A DNA stretch of 64,000 nucleotides from Actinocorallia populi (GTDB lineage Bacteria > Actinomycetota > Actinomycetes > Streptosporangiales > Streptosporangiaceae): positions 310,001-374,000 of the forward strand of contig NZ_PVZV01000002.1 in NCBI RefSeq assembly GCF_002995495.1, written 5' to 3'. Numbering within the stretch: position 1 is the stretch's first letter; each line of letters begins with the position of its first letter. The position numbers and the translations under genes were made by a program. Under the pieces are notes generated by a model. It was not told the DNA's origin, made no database searches, and saw only the letters and a program-made list of their open reading frames with translations. This document shows, in pieces, positions 4,836-58,966 of this stretch.

Positions 4836-5618
4836 TCAGGGGCGGGTGTAGCGGGTGGGGGAGTGGCCTACGGAGGCGGTGAAGTCGCGGATGAGGTGGG
4901 ACTGGTCGGCGTAGCCGAGTTCGGTGGCGAGGGCGGGCCAGTCGATGGGCTCGGCGGCGTCGGCGCGGGCGGCGACCTCGTGGAGGCGGGCCCGGCGGAG
5001 GACCCACTTGGGAGAGGCGCCGACGTATTCGGAGAAGAGGCGCTGGAGGGCGCGGACGGACAGGCCGGCGGAGGCGGCGGCGTCGGAGACGCGGAAGAGG
5101 GACGGCTCGGTGGTGAAGCGGGCGACGAGGCCGGCGGCGCGCAGGGCGTCCGGGTCGGGGCGCGCGGGGACGCGGGGGAGGAGGAAGGCCTCGGCGAGGG
5201 CCGCCGCCTCGGCGGGGTCGGCGGTGGCCTGGACCGTGCGGCCCAGGGCGTCGGCCTCGGGGCCGAAGTACCCGGCGGCGGGGACGCGGTGGTCGGCGAG
5301 CGCGGAGACGGGGGCGCCGCAGAAGGCGCGGAACGCCCCGACGCGGAACTTCACGCCCAAGGTGTGGTCGCGGCCCTCCAGCCTGCGGGTGAACAGGCCG
5401 CGGTGGACGCCGTAGACGAACACGCCCTCGGGCTCCATGCCCAGGTGCACGTTCGGGTGGCTGAGGACCTTGGTCTCGAAGACCCCGTCGACCGCCCAGC
5501 GGACGTGCCAGTAGTGCTCGACGTACGGCTCGAGGGGAGCGCTGGGCGCGTGGTGCGTCAGCTCGACGTAACGGGACTGTTCGACGGGGTACAGCACGCC
5601 CCGGGCCTTCACCGCCAT
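4836..5618 (-). CDS. AraC-family transcriptional regulator with N-terminal DUF6597-type sensor domain
   Basis: 260 residues. The N-terminal half (RYVELTHHAPSAPLEPYVEHYW, a VKFRVGAFRAF stretch and the FGPEADALG segment) matches the DUF6597 ligand-sensing region found in many actinobacterial AraC proteins. The C-terminal HTH_18 domain is visible as ALQRLFSEYVGASPKWVLRR and LATELGYADQSHLIRDFTASVG. The ATG at 5618 is chosen because the longer frame would run into the divergent gene. It is divergent from the 5683 gene across 64 bp, a classic regulator-target arrangement. Effector unknown. Confidence 0.88.
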   Translation of the reverse strand: MAVKARGVLYPVEQSRYVELTHHAPSAPLEPYVEHYWHVRWAVDGVFETKVLSHPNVHLGMEPEGVFVYGVHRGLFTRRLEGRDHTLGVKFRVGAFRAFCGAPVSALADHRVPAAGYFGPEADALGRTVQATADPAEAAALAEAFLLPRVPARPDPDALRAAGLVARFTTEPSLFRVSDAAASAGLSVRALQRLFSEYVGASPKWVLRRARLHEVAARADAAEPIDWPALATELGYADQSHLIRDFTASVGHSPTRYTRP

Positions 5619-5682
5619 CCCCGCATCGTAGCCGTCGCGTTTCTTCAAGACCCCGCCCGCGCGGGAGACTACCTTCGAAAGT

Positions 5683-6264
5683 ATGAACGAAACGTACAAG
5701 GCCATGACCGAGTGCGCCGCCGAGGCGGTGCGCGTCGCGGGGAAGGTGCGCGGAGAGCTGCTCGACGGCCCGACGACCTGCGCGGAGTTCGATCTGCGGG
5801 CCCTGGTGAACCACTGGGTGCTGTACACCTCCTACGGGCTGGAGCGCCGGGCGCTGAAGCAGCCGCTCCCCGAGGAACTCGTCGCCCGCGACTTCACCGC
5901 CGAGGACGGCTGGGCCGCCGCCTACGCCGCCCAGCTCGACCGGGCCCTGCAGGCCTGGGCCGACCCCGCCGCCTGGGAGGGCGAGATCCCCCTCGGCGAC
6001 GGCCGCACCGGCGCCGCCCCCCAGATCGCCGCACTGATCGTCAAGGAGATGGCCGTGCACGGCTGGGACGTCGCCCGCTCCATCGGCGAGGACTTCGCCA
6101 TCAGCGACGACTCCGCCGCCGTCGTCCTGCACGTCGTCGAGGAGAACGCCGAGCTCTACCGCCAGTACCAGGGCTTCGCCGCCCCCGTCGAAGTCCCCGC
6201 CTCCGCCCCCCTCTTCACCCGCGCCCTGGCCCTCTCCGGCCGCGACCCCCACCAGACCGTCTGA
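5683..6264 (+). CDS. TIGR03086-type metal-binding protein (mycothiol maleylpyruvate isomerase N-terminal/DinB-like fold)
   Basis: 193 residues with the family layout: an N-terminal helix, a TCAEFDLRALVNHW segment carrying the first metal-ligand His, and KEMAVHGWDVARSIG with the second metal-site His near residue 127. Proteins of this class form four-helix bundles with a three-ligand metal site and are often mycothiol-dependent transferases or isomerases; this one's substrate is unknown. It is divergent from the AraC regulator, which probably controls it. A long tandem-repeat array follows the stop. Confidence 0.82.
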   Translation: MNETYKAMTECAAEAVRVAGKVRGELLDGPTTCAEFDLRALVNHWVLYTSYGLERRALKQPLPEELVARDFTAEDGWAAAYAAQLDRALQAWADPAAWEGEIPLGDGRTGAAPQIAALIVKEMAVHGWDVARSIGEDFAISDDSAAVVLHVVEENAELYRQYQGFAAPVEVPASAPLFTRALALSGRDPHQTV

Positions 6265-6270
6265 CCCCCG

Positions 6271-6830
6271 GCCCCCCACCGGGCACCTCGGTCCCCGGTC
6301 CGCCCCCCATCAGGCCGCCCGGTCCCCGGTCCGCCCGCATCAGACCGTTCGGTCCCGGTCCGCTCTCATCGGCCGTTCGGTCTTCGACCGGCACCCACTG
6401 GGCCGTCTGGTCCTCGGTCCGTTCTCACCAAACCGTTCGGTGCTCGGTCTGATCTCACGGGGCTGTTCGGTTCTCGGCTCGTCCCCATCGGGCCGTCTGG
6501 TCCTCGGTCTGTTCTCACCAGGCCATTTGGTACTCGGTCCGCCCCCATCGGGCCGTTCGGTCTTCGACCGACACCCGCCGGGCCGTTCGGTCCTCGGATC
6601 GTTTTACCGGGTGGTCTGGTGCTTGGCCTGCTCTCACCGGACCGTCTGACCCCGGCCCACCCCCATCGGGCTGTTCGTGCTCGGCCTGATCTCACGGGGC
6701 TATTCGGTTCTCGGCTCGCCCCCATCGGGCCGCTCGGTCCTCGGCCTGATCTCATCGGGCTGTTCGGTCCTGGCCTGCCGGGCCGTTTGCATCCGGGTCT
6801 GTCTTCATCAGGTCGTCTGGCCCTCGGTGG
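6271..6830. repeat. Degenerate 30-bp tandem repeat array (about 19 units)
   Basis: Between two convergent genes lies an array with a strict 30-bp period, best seen from 6371 to 6610. Each unit reads roughly GGCCGTTCGGTCCTCGG followed by a more variable GATCTCATCGG-type half. Because 30 is a multiple of three and stops are rare, decapeptide-periodic open frames appear on both strands (FGPRPDLIGL on plus; RGPDGPMGTS on minus), so coding cannot be inferred. Units are 60-90% identical. No spacer/repeat alternation is seen, so it is not a CRISPR. Function unknown; possibly a minisatellite, transcription-end or nucleoid-protein binding array. Confidence 0.85.
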
Positions 6831-6841
6831 GGGTGGGAGGG

Positions 6842-11467
<4,626 letters not shown>

Positions 11468-49930: not shown

Positions 49931-50539
49931 TCAGCGGCTGTAGAACTCCACGACCTGCTGCTCGTCGCAGATGATCGGGATCTCCCGGCGCTCGGGGAGC
50001 CGCTCCAGCCGGGCGAGCAGGTTCCCGGCGCGCACGTCCAGGTAGGGGGCCGGGACGGCGGGCGCGTAGCCGCCCTGCGCGGCGGTCTGGAAGGGGACCA
50101 TCGCGCGGCTCTTCTCGGCGACGGAGATGAAGTCGCCCGGACGCAGCCGGTAGGACGGGCGGTCGACGCGCCTGCCGTTCACCAGGATGTGGCGGTGCAC
50201 GACGAACTGGCGGGCCTGGTAGATGGTGCGGGCGAAGCCGGCGCGCAGCACCAGGGCGTCCAGCCGCCGCTCCAGGTCGATGATCAGCGCCTCGCCGGTC
50301 TTGCCCTCCACCTTGCGCGCCCGGTCGAAGGCGAGCCGCAGCTGCGCCTCGCGGATGTTGTACTGCGCGCGCAGCCGCTGCTTCTCCAGCAGCTGTGCCT
50401 TGTAGGGGGAGTCCTTCTTGCGGCCCCGGCCGTGCACGCCCGGCGGGTAGGGGCGGGCCTCGAAGTACTTCACGCACTTGGGCGTGAGCGGGATGCCCAG
50501 GGCGCGGGAGAGCTTCGCCTTCGGCCGGGGGTTGTTCAT
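49931..50539 (-). CDS. rpsD: 30S ribosomal protein S4
   Basis: 202 residues. It nucleates 16S rRNA 5'-domain assembly. Typical actinobacterial S4: [64 protein letters not shown] (S4 RNA-binding domain) and a final [15 protein letters not shown]. The four-Cys zinc cluster of some S4 proteins is absent. It stands alone rather than in the rpsM-rpsK-rpoA operon. Two overlapping iron-box-like sequences lie just upstream, shared with the divergent DUF2470 gene. Whether a second rpsD exists elsewhere cannot be seen. Confidence 0.94.
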
Positions 50540-50629: not shown

Positions 50630-51403
50630 GTGATCTGCAGACCTGGACCCGCCGAGCGGGCACGCACCCTCGCCTACGGCGTCGCCGGCGGTTCGCTGAC
50701 CGCGCTGGAGCTCCCCGAGGAGCTCGTCACCGCGCACGTGGCCGGCCCCGACGGCGCGCCGCTGCTGCTCATGCCCGTCTCGTCCCCGGTGGTGCAGAAC
50801 CTGGAGCACGCCGCGGACCTGCCCGTCACGTTCCAGATCACCGACCTGGCGCCGGTGCCGCTGGCCGACCGGGTGCGCGGCACGGCCTGGCTGCACGGCT
50901 GGGTGACCGAGGTGCCGCTGGAGACCCGGCGCGAGGCCGCCGTCCGGCTCTCGCGGCTGCACCCCCGCCCCGACCTGCTCGACGTCGGGGTGCGCATCCC
51001 GCTCTCCGGCGAGGAGCCGGAGTGGACGATCCTGTCCCTGGAGGTCGCCGAGGTGCACCTGCAGGACACGTGGGGCGACTCCGTCATCGAGCCCGAGGAC
51101 TACGCGGCCGCCGTCCCCGACCCGTTCGTCGCGGTGGAGCCCTCCCTCGTCTCCCACCTGGACGCCCACCACCGCGAGGAGCTGGAGGCGCTGTTCCGCC
51201 ACCGCTTCGGCGACGTCTCCCCGACCCCGTCGGTACGGGCCGTCGGCCTGGACCGCTTCGGCCTCCGCGTCCGCTGCTCGGTCCCCGGCGGCCCCGCCCC
51301 CTTCGACCTTCGCTTCTCCTTCCCCGAACCCGCCGCGGACATGGACGCGCTCCGCCGCGCCTACCGCCACCTCTTCCGCAACGCCCGCCACACCGCGGCC
51401 TGA
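50630..51403 (+). CDS. DUF2470 / haem-iron-utilisation (HugZ-like) protein
   Basis: 257 residues. The N-terminal part resembles the PNP-oxidase-like split barrel of haem-utilisation proteins. The C-terminal part (HLDAHHREELEALFRHRFG and RAVGLDRFGLRVRCS) is the DUF2470 domain that often accompanies HugZ-type haem-degrading or haem-binding proteins. GTG at 50630 with AGGAGG 7 nt upstream. The iron boxes 42 bp upstream support a role in iron or haem acquisition. Enzymatic activity not assignable. Confidence 0.78.
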   Translation: MICRPGPAERARTLAYGVAGGSLTALELPEELVTAHVAGPDGAPLLLMPVSSPVVQNLEHAADLPVTFQITDLAPVPLADRVRGTAWLHGWVTEVPLETRREAAVRLSRLHPRPDLLDVGVRIPLSGEEPEWTILSLEVAEVHLQDTWGDSVIEPEDYAAAVPDPFVAVEPSLVSHLDAHHREELEALFRHRFGDVSPTPSVRAVGLDRFGLRVRCSVPGGPAPFDLRFSFPEPAADMDALRRAYRHLFRNARHTAA

Positions 51404-51422
51404 CCCGCCGCACGGCGGTCAG
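51400..51422. terminator. Compact dyad between convergent genes
   Basis: CTGACcCGCCG-CA-CGGCGgTCAG-type hairpin overlapping the stop codons of the DUF2470 gene and the minus-strand ThDP enzyme gene. Confidence 0.45.
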
Positions 51423-53125
51423 TCGTGGAGGCGGGACTCGAGGGTCTCGGTGAGGCCGGCTATGAGGCCCTTGGGGGAAGGGCTGTAGTGGGGGGCGGGG
51501 GAGCGGGAGATGCGGGCGTCGATGAGGGTGGGACGGGATGAGGCCAGGGCGGTGCCGAAGGCGTCCTTGAAGTCCGCGAGGGTCTCGGCGGTGTGGGCCT
51601 CGGCGCCGCAGGCGCGGGCGTAGGCGGCGAAATCGGGGTTCTGGAACTCCACCAGGGCCGTCTCCTGGTGTTCGAAGAGCTGGGCGAGTTTGACGAGCTT
51701 GTACTCGTGGTCGTTGAAGACGACCCACACGACGGGGATCTCGTGCTCGACGGCGGTCATCAGCTCGAAGCCGCCCATCGTGTAGCAGCCGTCGCCGCAG
51801 CCGACGACGACCGTGCGGTCGGGGTGGGCGAGCTTGACGCCGATGGCCCCGTTGACGTGCGCGGACATCGCGCCGAACGCGTCGGCCTTGCGGAAGCGCT
51901 GGTCGTCGCGCAGCTCCGCGTGGTAGCCCAGCCAGGACGCGTGGGCGCCGGAGTCGGCGAGCAGGACGGCGCGGGGCGGCAGCATCCGGCCGATCTCCCG
52001 GGCGAGCTCACCCGGATGGATCTTGTCGGTGACGTGGACGATGGGCCAGGCGTCCCAGTCGCGGCCGCGCACCCGGGCGCGCGGCACCTCGCCGACCCTG
52101 CGCTCCAGCGCCTCGGTGATGGCGGCCACCGCCGGGCGCGCGTCCGACAGGAGCGTGCGGTCGGGCTTGTAGGCCTTGTGGAACTCGGCCTCCGCGATGT
52201 TGACGTACAGGAGCACCTTGCCGTCGAAGAGGTCCTCGCGGTAGTCGAACGTGGCGTGCTGGCCGAGGGAGCTGCCGACGCACAGCACCACGTCGGCCTC
52301 CCGGAACGCCTTCCAGGCCGAGGAGTGGCCGCTGTCGGCGAAGACGCCCGCCGCCAGCGGGTGCCGCTCCGGGACGATGCCCTTGCCGTCGAGCGTGGTC
52401 AGCAGCGGGAACTGGAACCGCTCGACCAGCCGCCCGATCTCCGGCCCCGCCCCGCTGCGGACCGCGCCGAACCCCGCGAGCACCACCACGCGCCTCCGCT
52501 CGGCGACGGCGTCCGCCAGCACCCGCGCGATCTCCTCGACCTGCGCCGGATCGGGCAGGACGGGCGCGACGTCGAGCCGCACGGGCCGGGCGCCGCGGAT
52601 CTTCACGCCCCGCTCGTCCAGGTCCCGGGGGACGTGGACGTGCACCGGTCCCGGCCGCCCCGCGAAGGCGAGGTTGACGGCCTCCTCCAGCACGTCGAAC
52701 ACCTGGCCCGGGTCGTCGATGAGGAAGGACGCCTTGGTGGTGGCCGCGAACATCGCCCGGGAGTCCGGCGTCCCGCCCCGTCCCGACGTCTCGTTGAGCG
52801 CGCCCCACCCCTGGAATCTGCGGTCGGCGTACCCCGAGACGGCCAGGACGGGGTAGCACCCGGCCAGCGCGGTCGCCAGCCCGGAGAAGAGGTTGAACGC
52901 GCCCGGCCCGGCCGAGGCGAAGCAGAATCCCGGCTTCCCGCTGTACATCGCGTACCCGCAGGCCATGAAGGAGGCGGCCTGCTCGTTGCGGGTGATGACC
53001 GTCCGGATCCGGGCGGAGTGCTTCAGCGCCAGCATCAGGCCGGAGATGCCCTCTCCCGCCCCGCCGAAGGCGGCGTCCACCCCGACGTCCTCGAGCGCCC
53101 GGACGACGGCCTCGTAGATCCGCAT
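51419..53125 (-). CDS. Thiamine-diphosphate-dependent lyase/decarboxylase-like enzyme (acetolactate-synthase superfamily)
   Basis: 568 residues with three-domain ThDP architecture: an N-terminal Pyr domain with catalytic Glu48 in ITRNEQAASFMA, a central domain, and a C-terminal PP domain with the ThDP/Mg motif GDGCYTMGGFELMTA ending in VFND. The superfamily includes acetolactate synthase, oxalyl-CoA decarboxylase and 2-hydroxyacyl-CoA lyase. Starting 15 bp after the alpha-dioxygenase fusion gene on the same strand, it is a good candidate for processing 2-hydroxy or 2-oxo fatty-acid derivatives, as 2-hydroxyacyl-CoA lyase does in eukaryotic alpha-oxidation. That link is inference. Confidence 0.87.
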   Translation of the reverse strand: MRIYEAVVRALEDVGVDAAFGGAGEGISGLMLALKHSARIRTVITRNEQAASFMACGYAMYSGKPGFCFASAGPGAFNLFSGLATALAGCYPVLAVSGYADRRFQGWGALNETSGRGGTPDSRAMFAATTKASFLIDDPGQVFDVLEEAVNLAFAGRPGPVHVHVPRDLDERGVKIRGARPVRLDVAPVLPDPAQVEEIARVLADAVAERRRVVVLAGFGAVRSGAGPEIGRLVERFQFPLLTTLDGKGIVPERHPLAAGVFADSGHSSAWKAFREADVVLCVGSSLGQHATFDYREDLFDGKVLLYVNIAEAEFHKAYKPDRTLLSDARPAVAAITEALERRVGEVPRARVRGRDWDAWPIVHVTDKIHPGELAREIGRMLPPRAVLLADSGAHASWLGYHAELRDDQRFRKADAFGAMSAHVNGAIGVKLAHPDRTVVVGCGDGCYTMGGFELMTAVEHEIPVVWVVFNDHEYKLVKLAQLFEHQETALVEFQNPDFAAYARACGAEAHTAETLADFKDAFGTALASSRPTLIDARISRSPAPHYSPSPKGLIAGLTETLESRLHD

Positions 53126-53140
53126 GCTCCGCCTCCCGGC

Positions 53141-56071
53141 TCAGGCGAGTCCGAGGACTCCGGGCGGCGGCTCCTCGGGAAGCGCGGCGCGCCACGGCGC
53201 GAAGGCGCTCGCCTCCCTGGGCAGGAAGGCCGCCAGGTCCGGGCAGTGCCGCAGCAGGACGCTGCTCATGCCGTTGCGGGCGATCCAGTCCATGCCGAGC
53301 GGCGTGTAGATCTCGGGCCGGAAGTCCACGGTCAGGAACCTGTCGCTCTGCAGCCGCCGGGTGGCCATGAGGAGGAAGACGCGGAAGGCCGTGTCGCTGA
53401 AGCCGAACCCCTCCGGCGGGGTCTCGGCGAACAGGCCCACCATCGTGTCGACCTCGTCGACCGTCCGGTAGACCTCCTTGAGCCGCGCCGCGGTCTCCGG
53501 GTCGGCGGAGATCTCCTCGAAGCGGCGGACGCGCGGCTTGTGCAGACCCGAGCGGAAGTCGTTGTAGCGCGGGACGCCGCGCCGCCGGTCGCGCACGAGG
53601 TCGACCACCGACAGGTCGATGATCTCGCCCTCCCGCTCCAGCCGCTGGAGCGACGTCGGGTAGTTGTGCAGGGCGATCGCGCCCGGGTGGGCGACGCCGA
53701 ACGAGTAGAGCGCGTTGGCCAGGCCCGTCCGGCGCAGCACGTCCTCGGCCGCGGGACCCAGGAGGCCCTCGAGGCCCAGGGACCCCAGGGAGCGCCCGGT
53801 GCGGTGGTCGGCGAACTCGTAGTCGTCGGGGATCAGCGGGTGCATCCGGTAGACGGTGACGAACTCCTCGGTGAGGGAGTACGGCACGCCGTGGTGGTCG
53901 GGAAGGGTCCCGGGGATACCGGTGAGCGCGTGCGCGTCGGCCAGCCACAGGCCCAGCCGGGTCGGCCGGTCGCTCGGCGGACCCGACCAGTTGGCGTTCA
54001 TGCCGACGTCGAGCGCCTCGGTGGCGAGGATCGCCGGGGTCCACTCCACCGTGTGGATCTTGGCGATGAGCGCGGAGACGACGAGGCGCGCCGTGTGGTA
54101 GACCTGCTCCTCCTGCATGCGCGGGTACTCGGTGCGCAGCGCCTCGCACACCGTGTTGTGCTCGCGGGCGAAGAGCGTGTGCATGAGGCTGAGCCCCAGC
54201 CACCAGTTCTCCCGGAAGCCGGTGATCGGGACGCCGTCGGGGCCGAGCGGCAGGTGCCCGTCCTCCAGGCGCAGCCCCGCGCCGCCGTCGGGGTCGCGCA
54301 GCGACATGGCGACGGTCTCGTCGCCGCCGTAGACCTCCGAGCCGTCCCACCAGTGGGAGGCGGTGTTGGCGAACAGGATCGGCGGCTCGCCGCCGGCGGG
54401 CACCACGCCGTGGTTCTCGGCGAAGCGCATCACCCGTTCGGGCGACCCGCCCGGGAGGTTGGACCAGGTCATGCCGTACGGCAGCGGCACCTCGACGTTC
54501 CTGGTGCCGACGGGGTAGCGCCGGTGGTTGACCCAGTCGTGCACCTGGAACTGGATCCACGAGGCGGCCAGCAGGTTGAGGGTGCGGGCGGGGAGGAAGT
54601 TCCGCCGGTGCAGCAGCGTCCTGCTGACGGTCACCGGGTTGGGCACGTCGAACAGGCTCGGCCGGTAGACGGGCGGCATGTTGCGGCCGAAGGCCGAGCC
54701 GAGGGAGCCCATCATCGGCTCGGAAAGGTCGTTGTAGGAGCCGTCGAAGCTGCGCCGTACGATCAGTTCCTCGTCGATGGAGGGTGGCAGCTGGCGGGGT
54801 TCGGGGGGAGCCTCGCGGACCTCGGTGTCGATGAGGTCGTACCGGCGCAGCCTCTCCCGGAGGGCGATGAGGTTGAGCAGGCCCAGCCGGGTCGGCAGCC
54901 GGTGCCAGGGGACGGTCCGGTTGACGGTGCGGAACCCCCGGTCCAGGATCCGGACGGCGACGGTGTTGCGCCTGGGCACGGGCGTGACGAAGCGGTGGCC
55001 CCTGCGGTGGGCGCCGGCCGCCTCGTAGGCGGCTTTGCGGGCGCGGTTGACGTTGCCGAGAGGGCGGAACTCGTCGGTGGTGTTCCACGGGTCGAAGGCG
55101 AGTCCGTCGATGCGCAGGGCCGCGGCGCGCCCCTCCGCGGAGGCGACGTTCTGGCGCGGGATGGTCAGGGTCGCGACGGGGACGGACGGGGAGTCCTTCC
55201 ACGCGGTCGCGCCGTTCTCGACGGGCGTGCGCTCGGCGTCCCGGTACCGCTGGACGCACAGTTCGAAGACGACGTCGCCCTGGGCGAGCCGCGCGGCCAT
55301 CTCGTGGCTCAGGTAGTCGGGGTCGTTCAGCGCGGGGGAGGGGCCCTGGGGTGCTCCGGCGGCGCGGCGCAGGTGGAAGCGCACCGGCCCGGCCCCGCCC
55401 CACAACATCGCGCCGCGGCTCCAGTACGTCTCCAGCGCGAGGCTGCGCACGGTGCGCCCGGTGCCGGTCTTGATGTTGCGCCGCATCCGCGCGGCGGCAC
55501 GGCGGCCGACCTTCCCGGGAAGCTTGACGTACAGCCCTATGCCCTTGCGCAGGGGGGTGTCGGCGCCCGCCATGGCCTGCGCGAAGGCGACGAACTCGCG
55601 CGCGTTCGCGGCGTGGGAGACCGGATGGTTCGTCATGAGGAGGTCGTGCGCCTCCTCCTGGCCCACCTGGATCCGCAGGGCCACCCCGCGCAGGTCGGGC
55701 GCGGAGTCCGGCTGCCGGAGCCCGCTGGCGTTGGAGAACCGCGCGATGACCGGGTATTCGGCTCCGGGCCTGGCGAAACCGACCCGCAGATCCGCCGGAA
55801 GGTCGGAGTGGAACCGCAGCGAGGCGTTCTCCACCCCGAGCAGCCCCTTGGCGTGGAACGCCCGGTCGACGCTCCGCGCCCCGCTCCGCTTCCTGGTCTT
55901 CAGCTGGACCAGCATGAGATCGCGCGCGAGCTTCTCGAAGAGCCTCCGCTCCAGTTCGGGGTTGCCCCCGGCGTACCGCTCGTACCGCTCGCCGGCCCGG
56001 GGCGCCGCCGCGGGAGCCGCCGCCGTGGTCGTCTCGCGGGCGGAACGCGTCCGCTGCTCGGTCTCGTACAT
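53141..56071 (-). CDS. Fusion of catalase-related haem domain and fatty-acid alpha-dioxygenase
   Basis: 976 residues. Residues about 35-365 form a catalase-related domain: distal His73 in RAFHAKG, Asn148 in LLMTNHPVSH, DLRGVALRI, and the haem-Tyr motif RKAAY (R345-Y349), as in catalase-like allene oxide synthases. Residues about 420-976 match plant-type alpha-dioxygenase and cyclooxygenase-like enzymes: distal His511 (SWIQFQVHDW), catalytic Tyr741 and proximal His744 in VYRMHPLIPD, VPRYNDFR and MATRRLQSDRF. The expected products are 2-hydroperoxy fatty acids, which the first domain could rearrange or reduce. ATG at 56071 follows GGAG. It is operonic with the ThDP enzyme and divergent from another haem peroxidase. 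Confidence 0.9.
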   Translation of the reverse strand: MYETEQRTRSARETTTAAAPAAAPRAGERYERYAGGNPELERRLFEKLARDLMLVQLKTRKRSGARSVDRAFHAKGLLGVENASLRFHSDLPADLRVGFARPGAEYPVIARFSNASGLRQPDSAPDLRGVALRIQVGQEEAHDLLMTNHPVSHAANAREFVAFAQAMAGADTPLRKGIGLYVKLPGKVGRRAAARMRRNIKTGTGRTVRSLALETYWSRGAMLWGGAGPVRFHLRRAAGAPQGPSPALNDPDYLSHEMAARLAQGDVVFELCVQRYRDAERTPVENGATAWKDSPSVPVATLTIPRQNVASAEGRAAALRIDGLAFDPWNTTDEFRPLGNVNRARKAAYEAAGAHRRGHRFVTPVPRRNTVAVRILDRGFRTVNRTVPWHRLPTRLGLLNLIALRERLRRYDLIDTEVREAPPEPRQLPPSIDEELIVRRSFDGSYNDLSEPMMGSLGSAFGRNMPPVYRPSLFDVPNPVTVSRTLLHRRNFLPARTLNLLAASWIQFQVHDWVNHRRYPVGTRNVEVPLPYGMTWSNLPGGSPERVMRFAENHGVVPAGGEPPILFANTASHWWDGSEVYGGDETVAMSLRDPDGGAGLRLEDGHLPLGPDGVPITGFRENWWLGLSLMHTLFAREHNTVCEALRTEYPRMQEEQVYHTARLVVSALIAKIHTVEWTPAILATEALDVGMNANWSGPPSDRPTRLGLWLADAHALTGIPGTLPDHHGVPYSLTEEFVTVYRMHPLIPDDYEFADHRTGRSLGSLGLEGLLGPAAEDVLRRTGLANALYSFGVAHPGAIALHNYPTSLQRLEREGEIIDLSVVDLVRDRRRGVPRYNDFRSGLHKPRVRRFEEISADPETAARLKEVYRTVDEVDTMVGLFAETPPEGFGFSDTAFRVFLLMATRRLQSDRFLTVDFRPEIYTPLGMDWIARNGMSSVLLRHCPDLAAFLPREASAFAPWRAALPEEPPPGVLGLA

Positions 56072-56476
56072 GGACTCTCCTACCGGTGTCGCCCATCCTG
56101 CGGAAATCCGGCGATCGCCGGTTGAACACCCGATAGGAGAGTTCCCGCGCGTTCCTCCAGCACCCTGTACGGAGCACAAAATCTAGGCAGAGACCGGACA
56201 ACCGGTGGCGGTCGCGTATGCTCCGGCCGGTTCACGGGAGGCTGGGGAATCCATTCCATATAAATCTGGCGTAATGGACATAGCGCACAATTATTCGTGC
56301 CGAATCTTTGCATGGGTGTGCACATTCTCGGGAACGATGGAGCAGTGAGAGGGTGCCGGGGAATTGCAGGTCGCCCACATTCTGGCTTATGGGGAAAATC
56401 AGACTTTGCATTTCGTTGTTCCGGCGGAGGCCCGCGGTCCGAACGCAAAGCGGTGCGAACGAGGAGAGGTGCCCTG
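56072..56476. promoter_or_regulatory. AT-richer divergent regulatory region between two haem-peroxidase genes
   Basis: 405 bp of clearly lower GC than the flanking genes. It contains GGAAT-CC-ATTCC (about 56243), CATATAAATCTGG, an 8-bp palindrome TGTGCACA (about 56317) and several AT-rich hexamers. No convincing gene lies here: the plus-strand frame upstream of 56477 is low quality. It is a probable shared promoter/operator for the divergent dioxygenase fusion and peroxidase genes. Confidence 0.5.
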
Positions 56477-57958
56477 ATGGGAGTGTCGGATCGGCCGGAG
56501 CAGAAGGAGACACCCGCGGCCGGCCAGGGAGGGCCTCCCGGACGGAGCCACTCCAGCCTTCCCCGCGGACTCGGAGCACTGCCCGGCTCCCCGCTGCACG
56601 AGGGCAGGTTCGGGCGGATGTTCCGCAGGCTGCCGCCGTTCGTGCCCGGCGAGGACCAGATCGAGGCCCTGGCCCGGACGATGGTGGAGCGGCCCCCCGA
56701 CGCGTCCGGCGGCGACAACGAGGCGATCCCGGCGGGCTACACCTACCTGGGGCAGTTCGTCGACCACGACCTGACGTTCGACCCGCAGTCGAGCCTGGAC
56801 CGGCAGAACGACCCCGACGCGCTGGTCAGCTTCCGCTCTCCCCGGTTCGACCTGGACTGCGTCTACGGCCGGGGCCCCGCCGACCAGCCCTACCTCTACG
56901 ACAGGCGGGGGCCCGGCGCGTTCCTCGTCGGCGGGCGGGGCGGCGAACTGGACCTGCCGCGCAACCCCCGGGAGACCGCGATCATCGGGGACCCGCGCAA
57001 CGACGAGAACGTCTTCGTCAGCCAGCTCCACCTGACGATGATGTTGTTCCACAACAAGGTCCTGGAACGCCTGCCCGAGTTCCCGCAGGCCGCGCCGCGA
57101 GCCGGTGAGAGCCCCTTCGAGGCCGCCCAGCGGACGGTGCGCCACCACTACCAGTGGATCGTCGTGCACGACTTCCTGCGCCGCGTCGTCGGCGACCGGA
57201 CGTTCGGCTCCGTCCTCGCCCGGGAGCCGCAGGCGCCCGGCGGCGAGCCGGTGGAAAAGGCGGACCTGCGCTTCTTCCGGTGGCGCAACGCGCCGTTCGT
57301 CCCCGTCGAGTTCTCCGCCGCCGCCTACCGGTTCGGCCACTCCATGGTGCGCGGCGGATACAAGATCAACACCTCGGTTCCGCCGCTTCCCACTTTCACC
57401 CCCGAGCCGGTGAACGAAAATCCGCTCGGCCATTTCGGAGGTTTCCGCAGGCTTCCCGCGCGTTGGCAGGTGGAATGGCCGCGGTTCTTCGACCTCGGCG
57501 GTGCCCCCGGGGAACTGCAGCCCAGCCGCAGGATCGACACGGGGATCGTCCCGCCGCTCCACGAACTGCCCCCCGAGGTCGCGCCGGGCATGTCCTCGCT
57601 GGTCCGGCGCAACCTCACCCGGGGCGCACGGCTCGGCCTGCCCTCGGGGCAGGCGGTCGCCCGCGCCATGGGCTTCAGCCCGCTGACCGACGACGAGCTG
57701 GCGCTGCCGGAGCCCGGCCCTGCCCCCCTGTGGTACTACGTGCTGCGCGAGGCCGGACACCTCCACCGGGGCCGCCACCTCGGGCCGGTCGGCGGACACA
57801 TCGTCGCCGAGGTCCTCCTCGGCCTCCTCCACGCCGACCCCGCGTCCTACCCGGCCACGGAACCCGGCTGGCGCCCCTTCCTGCCCTCCGAGAACGACGG
57901 CGATTTCACCATGTCCGACCTGATCAGGTTCACCGGCTTCGGCCTCACACCGGTCTGA
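56477..57958 (+). CDS. Animal-type haem peroxidase (peroxinectin/cyclooxygenase superfamily)
   Basis: 493 residues. Distal His97 in GQFVDHDLTFDP, with the calcium-loop-like SPRFDLDCVYG, the RNDENVFVSQLHLTMMLFHN segment (175-193) and proximal His288 in YRFGHSMVRGGYK. No signal peptide or catalase-like domain is visible. It may oxidise halides, phenols or lipids with hydroperoxides; being divergent from the alpha-dioxygenase fusion gene it may use the lipid hydroperoxide made there. ATG at 56477 with GGAGAGG 8 nt upstream; longer starts at 56297 are unlikely. Confidence 0.88.
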   Translation: MGVSDRPEQKETPAAGQGGPPGRSHSSLPRGLGALPGSPLHEGRFGRMFRRLPPFVPGEDQIEALARTMVERPPDASGGDNEAIPAGYTYLGQFVDHDLTFDPQSSLDRQNDPDALVSFRSPRFDLDCVYGRGPADQPYLYDRRGPGAFLVGGRGGELDLPRNPRETAIIGDPRNDENVFVSQLHLTMMLFHNKVLERLPEFPQAAPRAGESPFEAAQRTVRHHYQWIVVHDFLRRVVGDRTFGSVLAREPQAPGGEPVEKADLRFFRWRNAPFVPVEFSAAAYRFGHSMVRGGYKINTSVPPLPTFTPEPVNENPLGHFGGFRRLPARWQVEWPRFFDLGGAPGELQPSRRIDTGIVPPLHELPPEVAPGMSSLVRRNLTRGARLGLPSGQAVARAMGFSPLTDDELALPEPGPAPLWYYVLREAGHLHRGRHLGPVGGHIVAEVLLGLLHADPASYPATEPGWRPFLPSENDGDFTMSDLIRFTGFGLTPV

Positions 57959-58144: not shown

Positions 58145-58966
58145 TCAGGACGGGAGGGTCCAGGCGGCGGAGACGTCGCGGCAGAAGGAGGCGAAGTCGC
58201 GGGGTTCGCGGCCGAGGGCCTCGCGGACGCCGTCGCCGAGCGAGGCGTTGCGCCCGTCGAAGACCTCCCGGCAGAGCTCGGTGAGCAGCTCGGCGTACTC
58301 GGGACCGGCCTGCCGGGAGAGCTCGGCGTGGAACTCGTCGAGGGTGACGGGGACGTAGGCGACCGGCCGGCCCGCGGCCTCCGCGATGCGGGCGGCGGCC
58401 TCGTGGAAGGTCAGGAGCCGCGGGCCGGTGAGCTCGTAGAGGCGGCCCTCGTGCCGGTCGTCGGTGAGCGCCGCGACCGCGACGTCGGCGAGGTCCTCCA
58501 GGTCGATGAACGGCTCGGCGACCTCCCCGGCGGGCATCGCGACGACCCCTTCGAGCACCTGTCCCAGCATGGCCCCCTCGCTGAAGTTCTGCGCGAACCA
58601 GCTGGCGCGCAGCAGCGTGTAGGGCAGTCCGGAGTCGCGGACGATCTCCTCGCAGCGGATCGCGTTGTGCTCGCCGCGGCCGGAGAGCAGCACCAGCCGC
58701 TCCACGCCCGCCTCGGCGGCGGCGGCGACGAACGCCTCGATGTCGGCGGGCGCGCCGGGAGCGGCGAGGTCGGGGGAGTAGGTGACGTAGACGGCGCCCG
58801 CGCCGCGCAGCGCCTCGGGCCAGGTCTCCCGCTTCTCCCAGACGAAGGGGATCTCGGTGTTGCGGGAGACGCCGCGGACGGCGTGGCCGAGCTCGGTGAG
58901 CCGGGCGATGACGCGGCCGCCGGTCTTGCCGGTCGAGCCGATGACGAGGATGGGCTTGGCGGTCAT
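58145..58966 (-). CDS. NmrA-like NAD(P)-binding protein
   Basis: 273 residues. Atypical SDR/NmrA fold: ILVIGSTGKTGGRVIARL (6-23), then LVLLSGRGEHNAI, LPYTLLRASWFAQNF and PFIDLEDLADVAVAAL, typical of NAD(P)H-quinone-reductase (QorB)-like or redox-sensing NmrA proteins. The catalytic YxxxK is not evident. It is divergent from the two-component system. Function: possible quinone reductase or NAD(P) sensor. Confidence 0.85.
   Translation of the reverse strand: MTAKPILVIGSTGKTGGRVIARLTELGHAVRGVSRNTEIPFVWEKRETWPEALRGAGAVYVTYSPDLAAPGAPADIEAFVAAAAEAGVERLVLLSGRGEHNAIRCEEIVRDSGLPYTLLRASWFAQNFSEGAMLGQVLEGVVAMPAGEVAEPFIDLEDLADVAVAALTDDRHEGRLYELTGPRLLTFHEAAARIAEAAGRPVAYVPVTLDEFHAELSRQAGPEYAELLTELCREVFDGRNASLGDGVREALGREPRDFASFCRDVSAAWTLPS

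What the first reader, a model, noticed from the sequence alone, without database searches (positions are those of the whole stretch)
51419..57958. Bacterial alpha-dioxygenase fused to a catalase-related domain, with a ThDP enzyme and a second haem peroxidase
Seen: one 976-residue frame carries both a catalase-like active site (His73, Asn148, R345xxxY349) and a full alpha-dioxygenase site (His511, Tyr741, His744). Known: alpha-dioxygenases make 2-hydroperoxy fatty acids; catalase-related allene oxide synthases in corals and cyanobacteria act on lipid hydroperoxides and are fused to lipoxygenases; 2-hydroxyacyl-CoA lyases are ThDP enzymes. Inference: this is an oxylipin or alpha-oxidation module in which the N-domain handles the hydroperoxide in cis and the ThDP enzyme or the divergent peroxidase acts next. 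I know of no described system with this exact fusion.
Basis: partly seen in the sequence, partly recalled or inferred. Interest (0 to 1): 0.88.

Follow-up and report, generated by a model that had tools for sequence, protein, structure and literature searches.

The report
Two-haem fatty-acid oxygenase fusion module
A soil bacterium carries one long enzyme that joins a fatty-acid oxygenase like that of plants to a catalase-like domain, next to a thiamine-dependent enzyme; similar sets recur in Streptomyces and legume rhizobia and probably make and then process fatty-acid peroxides in one protein, although the product is unknown.

Summary
Window 53141-56071 (-) encodes 976 residues: 380-970 match plant fatty-acid alpha-dioxygenases (E 5.5e-111), 60-357 a catalase-related protein. 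A ThDP enzyme follows after 15 bp.

The fusion is no accident. The 80 best relatives kept from named genomes all span both domains, in Actinomycetota and Rhizobiales. On a tree, fusions are one side of a branch, apart from single-domain alpha-dioxygenases. Its recurring partners are a nitroreductase-like gene (68 of 88 loci; not found in the window's genome) and a ThDP gene (49 of 88). The 'second haem peroxidase' accompanies 1 of 86 fusions, the window's, so it is not part. Asn148 is kept in 48 of 81; His73 in 79; Arg345, Tyr349, His511, Tyr741 and His744 in 81. The model does not resolve the haem pocket.

Best reading, no activity shown: the alpha-dioxygenase makes a 2-hydroperoxy acid, the catalase-related domain converts it in cis, and the ThDP enzyme takes the product. 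Precedents are the Nostoc 10S-dioxygenase with its catalase-related lyase, and coral AOS-LOX. New variant of a known kind.

The parts
53141..56071 (-). Catalase-related / alpha-dioxygenase fusion, 976 aa, ATG start
   Evidence: translation; homology; all 80 kept relatives span both domains
55001..55894 (-). N-terminal catalase-related domain (residues 60-357); His73 codon 55853-55855, Arg345 55037-55039, Tyr349 55025-55027
   Evidence: 3e4w match E 9e-16; PF00199 in 32 of 37 fusions; Foldseek 3e4y TMt 0.72 on a weak model; conservation
53162..54934 (-). C-terminal alpha-dioxygenase domain (residues 380-970); His511 codon 54539-54541, Tyr741 53849-53851, His744 53840-53842
   Evidence: 4hhr E 5.5e-111, 4kvj 3.3e-106; residues kept in 81 of 81
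51419..53125 (-). ThDP-dependent enzyme, 568 aa, 15 bp downstream of the fusion, acetolactate-synthase-like
   Evidence: TPP_enzyme N/M/C; nearest solved chains BbmA, CsmA, then AHAS; Glu48 and Gly444-Asp445-Gly446 in 43 of 43
56478..57958 (+). Divergent An_peroxidase-family gene: a neighbour only, judged NOT part of the module
   Evidence: E 3.9e-15, partial; beside 1 of 86 fusion loci; start codon choice is my reading

Best explanation
The fusion is a two-haem oxygenase. Its C-domain works as an alpha-dioxygenase: the Tyr741 radical takes a hydrogen from C2 of a free fatty acid and O2 adds there, giving a 2-hydroperoxy acid (inferred from homology). Its N-domain holds a second, Tyr349-ligated haem with distal His73 and receives that hydroperoxide in cis (inferred from the fusion). 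My preferred product is the 2-oxo acid, by net loss of water; a 2-hydroxy acid or the Cn-1 aldehyde are the alternatives. The ThDP enzyme then decarboxylates the 2-oxo acid, or joins its acyl unit to a second carbonyl compound. In most relatives examined a nitroreductase-like protein acts in the same pathway, and lipases encoded nearby may supply the fatty acid. Shown here: architecture, kept catalytic residues, one fusion lineage in the tree, recurring gene set. Inferred: every catalytic step and their order.
For: Homology and residues. One lineage: 28 fusions against 35 single-domain enzymes, one side of a branch, SH-aLRT 100. Gene set: nitroreductase-like in 68 of 88, window-type ThDP in 41, BFD-like ThDP in 8 others, in different gene orders. 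Fusion and nitroreductase-like genes share a strand in 57 of 61 loci measured, at -14 to +170 nt, starts set by my script. In 394 class genomes the close ThDP gene (2 genomes) and the close nitroreductase-like gene (2 genomes) each lie beside a fusion. Distances of the two domains, the nitroreductase-like protein and the ThDP enzyme correlate at r 0.86-0.97, and at 0.75-0.94 within actinobacteria. Genes matching lipases of three Pfam families lie in 29 of 86 fusion loci. For the 2-oxo acid: 9 of 36 single-domain alpha-dioxygenase loci carry an FAD-linked oxidase (function as 2-hydroxyacid oxidase recalled) plus a benzoylformate decarboxylase, and the FAD oxidase matched 0 of 88 fusion loci, as if the catalase-related domain replaced it.
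Against: No activity, haem content or substrate was measured. No ThDP gene of the types sought is in 39 of 88 fusion loci and no nitroreductase-like gene in 20 of 88 (some contigs end close by). In the class sample only 2 of 6 fusion genomes gave the close ThDP gene and 2 of 6 the close nitroreductase-like gene (only a few candidates per genome are scored there). The nine FAD-oxidase loci are one clade, so the replacement argument rests on one lineage. Distance correlations partly reflect species descent. Both structure models are weak (mean pLDDT 51.5 and 42.4), and the fusion model is unreliable exactly at the presumed haem ligands. Asn148 varies. The nitroreductase-like protein matches PF00881 only below cut-off in the three members whose bits were shown. 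The window's own genome lacks that partner at E<=0.001.
Confidence: 0.5

Rival explanations
1. The catalase-related domain is a peroxidase that reduces the 2-hydroperoxide to the 2-hydroxy acid, or sets peroxide tone for the alpha-dioxygenase; 2-hydroxy fatty acids are the end product and the ThDP enzyme serves another step.
For: The only solved match of the N-domain alone is a catalase-related protein; that it is a small peroxidase is recalled. 39 of 88 fusion loci show no ThDP gene of the types sought.
Against: A 2-hydroxy acid product leaves the recurring ThDP partner without an obvious role, and no electron-donor gene is constant apart from the weakly identified nitroreductase-like one.
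Confidence: 0.2
2. The catalase-related domain is a hydroperoxide lyase: it cleaves the 2-hydroperoxide to CO2 and the Cn-1 aldehyde, which the ThDP enzyme joins to a pyruvate-derived unit, giving a long-chain acyloin.
For: Lyase precedent in a catalase-related partner of a haem dioxygenase (Nostoc 10S; passages seen in PMC13049297 and PMC9579011). The ThDP enzyme scores higher with acetolactate synthases, which carboligate (recalled), than with the lyase group.
Against: 2-Hydroperoxides lose CO2 unaided (recalled), so a dedicated lyase is not obviously needed. The ThDP enzyme has Asn111 (43 of 43) where the aligned acetolactate synthase has Gln, and Lys is not among the three commonest residues (40 of 43 rows) at that enzyme's VPKD position.
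Confidence: 0.2
3. The N-domain does other chemistry, for example O2 or superoxide chemistry as in the catalase-fold chanoclavine synthase (its chemistry recalled), or is mainly structural.
For: Foldseek also returns chanoclavine synthase 9jdc, at rmsd 17.9; distal Asn148 is not kept.
Against: R70, H73, R111, R345, Y349 and R356 are kept in 79-81 of 81.
Confidence: 0.07
4. The two genes are neighbours by chance in the window and the fusion is an annotation or assembly accident.
For: None found.
Against: Both domains are spanned in all 80 kept relatives, in two phyla, and a window-type ThDP gene is in 41 of 88 fusion loci.
Confidence: 0.02

Closest known systems
Plant and cyanobacterial fatty-acid alpha-dioxygenases (rice 4kvj, Arabidopsis 4hhr, CalDOX, LepDOX)
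   Same: C-domain over its full length, with catalytic Tyr and both His kept; only the plant ones were compared here
   Different: Here a catalase-related domain is fused in front. PMC8720084 reports actinobacterial alpha-DOX sequences; the words fused, fusion and catalase do not occur in its main text
Nostoc punctiforme 10S-dioxygenase and its catalase-related 10S-hydroperoxide lyase
   Same: Haem dioxygenase related to cyclooxygenase acting with a catalase-related protein on its hydroperoxide
   Different: Position C10 instead of C2 (inferred here) and a separate gene according to PMC13049297; PMC11719350 speaks of a fusion. Original paper not held; not compared by sequence
Coral AOS-LOX / HPL-LOX and cyanobacterial catalase-LOX fusions
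   Same: N-terminal catalase-related domain fused to a C-terminal fatty-acid dioxygenase in the corals (Foldseek 1u5u, 3dy5)
   Different: The dioxygenase there is a lipoxygenase; here it is a haem alpha-dioxygenase
Fungal DOX-P450 fusions
   Same: Haem dioxygenase with a second haem domain that processes the hydroperoxide (PMC13049297, passages)
   Different: The second domain is a cytochrome P450
BbmA / CsmA and acetolactate synthases (for the ThDP enzyme)
   Same: Nearest solved sequences, aligned over nearly the full length
   Different: Asn111 in 43 of 43 at the Gln position of the aligned AHAS. What BbmA and CsmA do was not found

Membership tests
Fatty-acid alpha-dioxygenase | Full-length sequence match with catalytic Tyr, distal and proximal His | tested here: met
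   H511, Y741 and H744 in 81 of 81
Fatty-acid alpha-dioxygenase | Makes 2-hydroperoxy fatty acids | not testable with these tools
   no assay
Catalase superfamily (catalase-related proteins) | Sequence and fold match to the family | tested here: met
   3e4w E 9e-16; PF00199 in 32 of 37 members at E<=0.01, not reported for P0001 alone; fold match on a weak model
Catalase superfamily (catalase-related proteins) | Distal His, proximal Arg-x3-Tyr | tested here: met
   H73 in 79 of 81, R345 and Y349 in 81 of 81
Catalase superfamily (catalase-related proteins) | Distal Asn | tested here: not met
   Asn in the window, but Asn 48, Ser 29, other or gap 4 of 81; typical catalase activity is not claimed
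Catalase superfamily (catalase-related proteins) | Haem pocket in a model | tested here: inconclusive
   residues 67-73 and 331-366 have pLDDT under 50
Catalase-related allene oxide synthase / hydroperoxide lyase | AOS or lyase reaction on a fatty-acid hydroperoxide | not testable with these tools
   only the fold match to 1u5u and 3dy5
Acetolactate synthase (acetohydroxyacid synthase) | Curated NCBIfam cut-off; Gln and Lys of the aligned AHAS (their roles recalled) | tested here: not met
   the 25 models shown of 59 are below cut-off, e.g. TIGR00118 272 of 538 bits; Gln is Asn111 in 43 of 43 and the VPKD Lys is Arg in the window
2-hydroxyacyl-CoA lyase | Nearest to this group among ThDP enzymes | tested here: not met
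   131 bits against 251 for BbmA and 193 for AHAS
Nitroreductase family (partner gene in relatives) | PF00881 above cut-off | tested here: inconclusive
   28 of 36 members match at E<=0.5, best 0.0031; the three whose bits were shown (17.5, 15.6, 13.1) are under 23.5; model pLDDT 42

The most novel reading that the evidence does not exclude
A bacterial pathway, shared by soil actinomycetes and legume-nodulating rhizobia, turns membrane fatty acids into long-chain 2-oxo acids or aldehydes inside one two-haem protein and passes them to a dedicated ThDP carboligase, giving an undescribed class of long-chain acyloin or ketone signals or volatiles, with the nitroreductase-like protein finishing the product.
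Probability: 0.2. Interest if true: 0.8.

Novelty: new variant of a known kind. Interest (0 to 1): 0.6.

Why it matters
It adds an alpha-dioxygenase version to the known pairings of fatty-acid dioxygenases with a second haem enzyme that processes the hydroperoxide. It is carried by many actinomycetes and by rhizobia, some on plasmids of strains from legume nodules. Of the 16 plasmid records that hold most of it, the 11 with an annotation under the match say only 'peroxidase family protein'. The recurring gene set makes it directly testable what bacteria make from alpha-oxidised fatty acids.

Tried and rejected
Rejected: the divergent peroxidase P0003 as a module part (1 of 86). Rejected: 2-hydroxyacyl-CoA lyase as the ThDP family. 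Considered and left open: which of three products the N-domain makes.

Led nowhere: the AlphaFold model of the nitroreductase-like protein (pLDDT 42.4) was too weak to search. The fusion model (51.5) gives some support for the N-domain fold but not for its haem pocket; its dioxygenase part superposes at about 27 A rmsd and is not used. A profile search of the nitroreductase-like family against the PDB gave one match at E 0.72. A promoter and terminator scan of 51200-56700 found none. Paper searches for BbmA and CsmA found no description. Searches bearing on this fusion were. No listed title or abstract start described it, but the listings are capped (10 to 20 papers, of up to 4,577 found) and the library lacks most subscription journals, so this is not proof of absence.

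Rows dropped or doubtful: 3 of 84 fusion frames with an internal stop in my extended reading (L034, L060, L133) were left out of the residue counts. The partial fusion of G054 (L037) is not in the 86 or 88. In L131 and L132 the N-domain match is split between two HSPs and L131 is short in my reading (777 aa); both stay in the counts. L131 was left out of the distance test. The tree used 27 of the 81 trimmed fusions plus the R. phaseoli plasmid one, and 35 of 36 single-domain loci (L039, a fragment, left out). In one search, 42 loci match the window-type ThDP, of which L072 and L078 do so at 27% only and are counted as BFD-like; the count with identity of at least 50% is. The 80 loci are the best of 202 found with a fusion profile, so they favour the fusion; the class sample (6 fusion genomes, own included, among 28 with a match at E<=1e-60, of 394) is the fairer frequency.
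Full report
WHAT IS THERE. The minus strand of the window holds a 976-codon gene at 53141-56071 and, 15 bp further on, a 568-codon gene at 51419-53125. The first encodes two enzyme domains. Residues 380-970 align end to end with the solved plant alpha-dioxygenases (Arabidopsis 4hhr, E 5.5e-111; rice 4kvj, E 3.3e-106). The rice chain 4kvl, titled Y379F, shows Phe where our protein has Tyr741, which fixes Tyr741 as the counterpart of rice Tyr379. Residues 60-356 match one solved protein, 3e4w/3e4y, titled 'catalase-related protein from Mycobacterium avium subsp. paratuberculosis' (E 9e-16; titles). Pfam reports only An_peroxidase for the window protein, but scanning 37 aligned fusions gives Catalase PF00199 for 32 at E<=0.01, best 1.2e-11.

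ACTIVE SITES. Among 81 fusions (3 of 84 dropped for internal stops in my reading), His511, Tyr741 and His744 are kept in 81. In the catalase-related domain His73 is kept in 79, Arg345, Tyr349 and Arg356 in 81, and Arg70 and Arg111 in 80. That these positions are the haem-binding ones of catalases is recalled. [quoted passage not shown] I saw only the title.

FOLD. The AlphaFold model is weak (mean pLDDT 51.5). Blocks of the N-domain between residues 41 and 330 lie mostly at 60-93, but residues 67-73 and 331-366, which hold His73, Arg345 and Tyr349, are under 50, so the model neither shows nor excludes a haem pocket. Foldseek returns 3e4y (TM 0.72 by target length, rmsd 5.0), coral allene oxide synthase 1u5u (0.55), the AOS-LOX fusion 3dy5 and many catalases, with a few hundred aligned columns each, and alpha-dioxygenases at rmsd about 27 A, which I do not count as fold evidence.

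HOW WIDESPREAD. A scan of named genomes with a profile of four fusions found 202 relatives and kept the best 80; all 80 matches run from query residue 1-36 to about 961-975. They come from Streptomyces, Nonomuraea, Actinomadura, Microtetraspora, Mycobacterium, Geodermatophilus and others, and from Mesorhizobium, Rhizobium and Phyllobacterium. Among plasmid records 16 hold at least 80% of the query. In an even draw of 394 genomes of the class, 28 have a match at E<=1e-60 and 6 of these carry the fusion, the window's genome included. On a tree of 28 fusions and 35 single-domain alpha-dioxygenases each group is one side of a branch with SH-aLRT 100 (short search; the program warns of long branches). 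One fusion event followed by spread between phyla fits this.

THE MODULE. Across 88 fusion loci, a protein of about 455 aa with weak resemblance to nitroreductases occurs in 68. A ThDP enzyme of the window's type (at least 50% identical) occurs in 41, and a benzoylformate-decarboxylase-like ThDP enzyme in 8 others; 39 loci have neither, some on contigs that end close by. The order is fusion - nitroreductase-like - ThDP in several Actinomycetota, and ThDP - fusion - nitroreductase-like in the Rhizobiales as well as in L112 (Mycobacterium) and L113 (Geodermatophilus). Where fusion and nitroreductase-like gene share a strand (57 of 61 measured) they lie -14 to +170 nt apart, 30 of them overlapping, with starts set by my script. 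In the class sample, nitroreductase-like genes of 70-72% identity occur in 2 of 394 genomes (6 more at 29-33%), and close ThDP genes (E<=1e-130) in 2 of 394; each of these four lies beside a fusion. Conversely, only 2 of the 6 fusion genomes there gave each partner. Distances of N-domain, C-domain, nitroreductase-like protein and ThDP enzyme correlate at r 0.86-0.97 (60 and 36 loci; no permutation of 2000 as high) and at 0.75-0.94 within actinobacteria; shared descent explains part. No nitroreductase-like gene was found in the window's genome at E<=0.001. Genes matching Tle1-like, class 3 and patatin lipases lie in 4, 13 and 12 of 86 fusion loci, 29 in all, some only about 30% identical and several kb away; patatins also lie near some single-domain enzymes.

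THE REST OF THE WINDOW. The divergent peroxidase (P0003) is beside 1 of 86 fusions. Among 100 relatives 9 have a match at E<=1e-20. G009 and G012 are among those matched and showed no alpha-dioxygenase match, while same-genus G001 has the fusion but no P0003 match. It is a neighbour only.

THE ThDP ENZYME. Nearest solved sequences are BbmA (251 bits), CsmA (212) and acetolactate synthases (193); 2-hydroxyacyl-CoA lyases score 131. None of the 25 NCBIfam models shown of 59 reaches its cut-off. Glu48 and the GDG motif are in 43 of 43. Asn111 replaces the Gln of the aligned acetolactate synthase in 43 of 43. What BbmA and CsmA do I could not find.

HOW IT MOST LIKELY WORKS. By homology the C-domain makes the 2-hydroperoxy acid. 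A catalase-related domain fused to a dioxygenase processes the dioxygenase's hydroperoxide in coral AOS-LOX and HPL-LOX (passages of PMC5617202). In Nostoc a haem 10S-dioxygenase works with a catalase-related lyase of a separate gene (passages of PMC13049297, and PMC9579011). [quoted passage not shown] Among single-domain alpha-dioxygenases, 7 of 36 loci have a match to the catalase-related domain nearby. In four of them (L039, L157, L158, L161) it follows the dioxygenase directly on the same strand; two of the seven (L038, L166) are short matches, and in one (L169) it lies about 4 kb away on the other strand. A different 9 of 36 have an FAD-linked oxidase, a benzoylformate decarboxylase, a P450 and a hydrolase- or ADC-like gene (annotated on a Streptomyces plasmid). 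The FAD oxidase matched 0 of 88 fusion loci and 0 of the 7. Fisher p is 7e-7, but those nine form one clade, so this is one evolutionary contrast. It suggests that single enzymes reach a 2-oxo acid through an FAD oxidase, while the catalase-related domain does so directly. That step is inference.

VERDICT. Real, conserved, and not described in the listings I could search. It is a new combination of known parts: an alpha-dioxygenase version of the dioxygenase plus hydroperoxide-processing haem enzyme theme, with recurring ThDP and nitroreductase-like partners. Papers: I saw passages of PMC8720084 (and its section 13), PMC9305512, PMC4420034, PMC5617202, PMC11719350, PMC9579011 and PMC13049297 and search listings with abstract starts; the Nostoc paper itself was not held.

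Noticed in passing
L053 (G000:C5), 5239-6498 + and about 6477-8078 +: The window's genome also has a cytochrome P450 gene overlapping an An_peroxidase gene whose translation holds YRWH, like the cyclooxygenase motif (recalled); it looks like a two-gene version of the fungal DOX-P450 theme.
   Followed up: partly
L040, L045, L051, L151, L159, L160, L162, L165, L168: Single-domain alpha-dioxygenases sit with benzoylformate decarboxylase, an FAD-linked oxidase, a P450 and a hydrolase- or ADC-like gene, once on a 39-kb Streptomyces plasmid.
   Followed up: partly
L146 11965-18481 (Rhizobium phaseoli pRphaN261c, typed conjugative): Fusion followed by a RoxA-like cytochrome c protein, a 195-aa protein and the nitroreductase-like protein (61% identical to P0004).
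   Followed up: partly
L035, L054, L112, L114: Two ThDP paralogues of the window's type near one fusion.
   Followed up: no
L065 13715-14530, L067 12163-13002: An additional match to the catalase-related domain, 29-30% identical, lies downstream of the fusion.
   Followed up: no
window 58145-58966 -: NmrA-type gene with a below-cut-off match to TIGR03649 ergot_EASG (111 of 256 bits); curious beside the Foldseek hit to chanoclavine synthase, probably coincidence.
   Followed up: no
window 49931-50539 -: Ribosomal protein S4-type gene; possibly an extra copy, not checked.
   Followed up: no
window 50630-51403 +: DUF2470-containing protein convergent with the ThDP gene.
   Followed up: no
L147 7165-8873 and 12120-13236: In Phyllobacterium sp. 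A18/5-2 the ThDP gene is annotated as two overlapping pieces, and the place of the nitroreductase-like gene as two overlapping hypothetical proteins, while the fusion is one gene.
   Followed up: no
L136-L139: Distant relatives (31-33%) of the nitroreductase-like protein exist in other actinobacteria; genes called around them in L140-L143 gave no best match to the fusion.
   Followed up: partly
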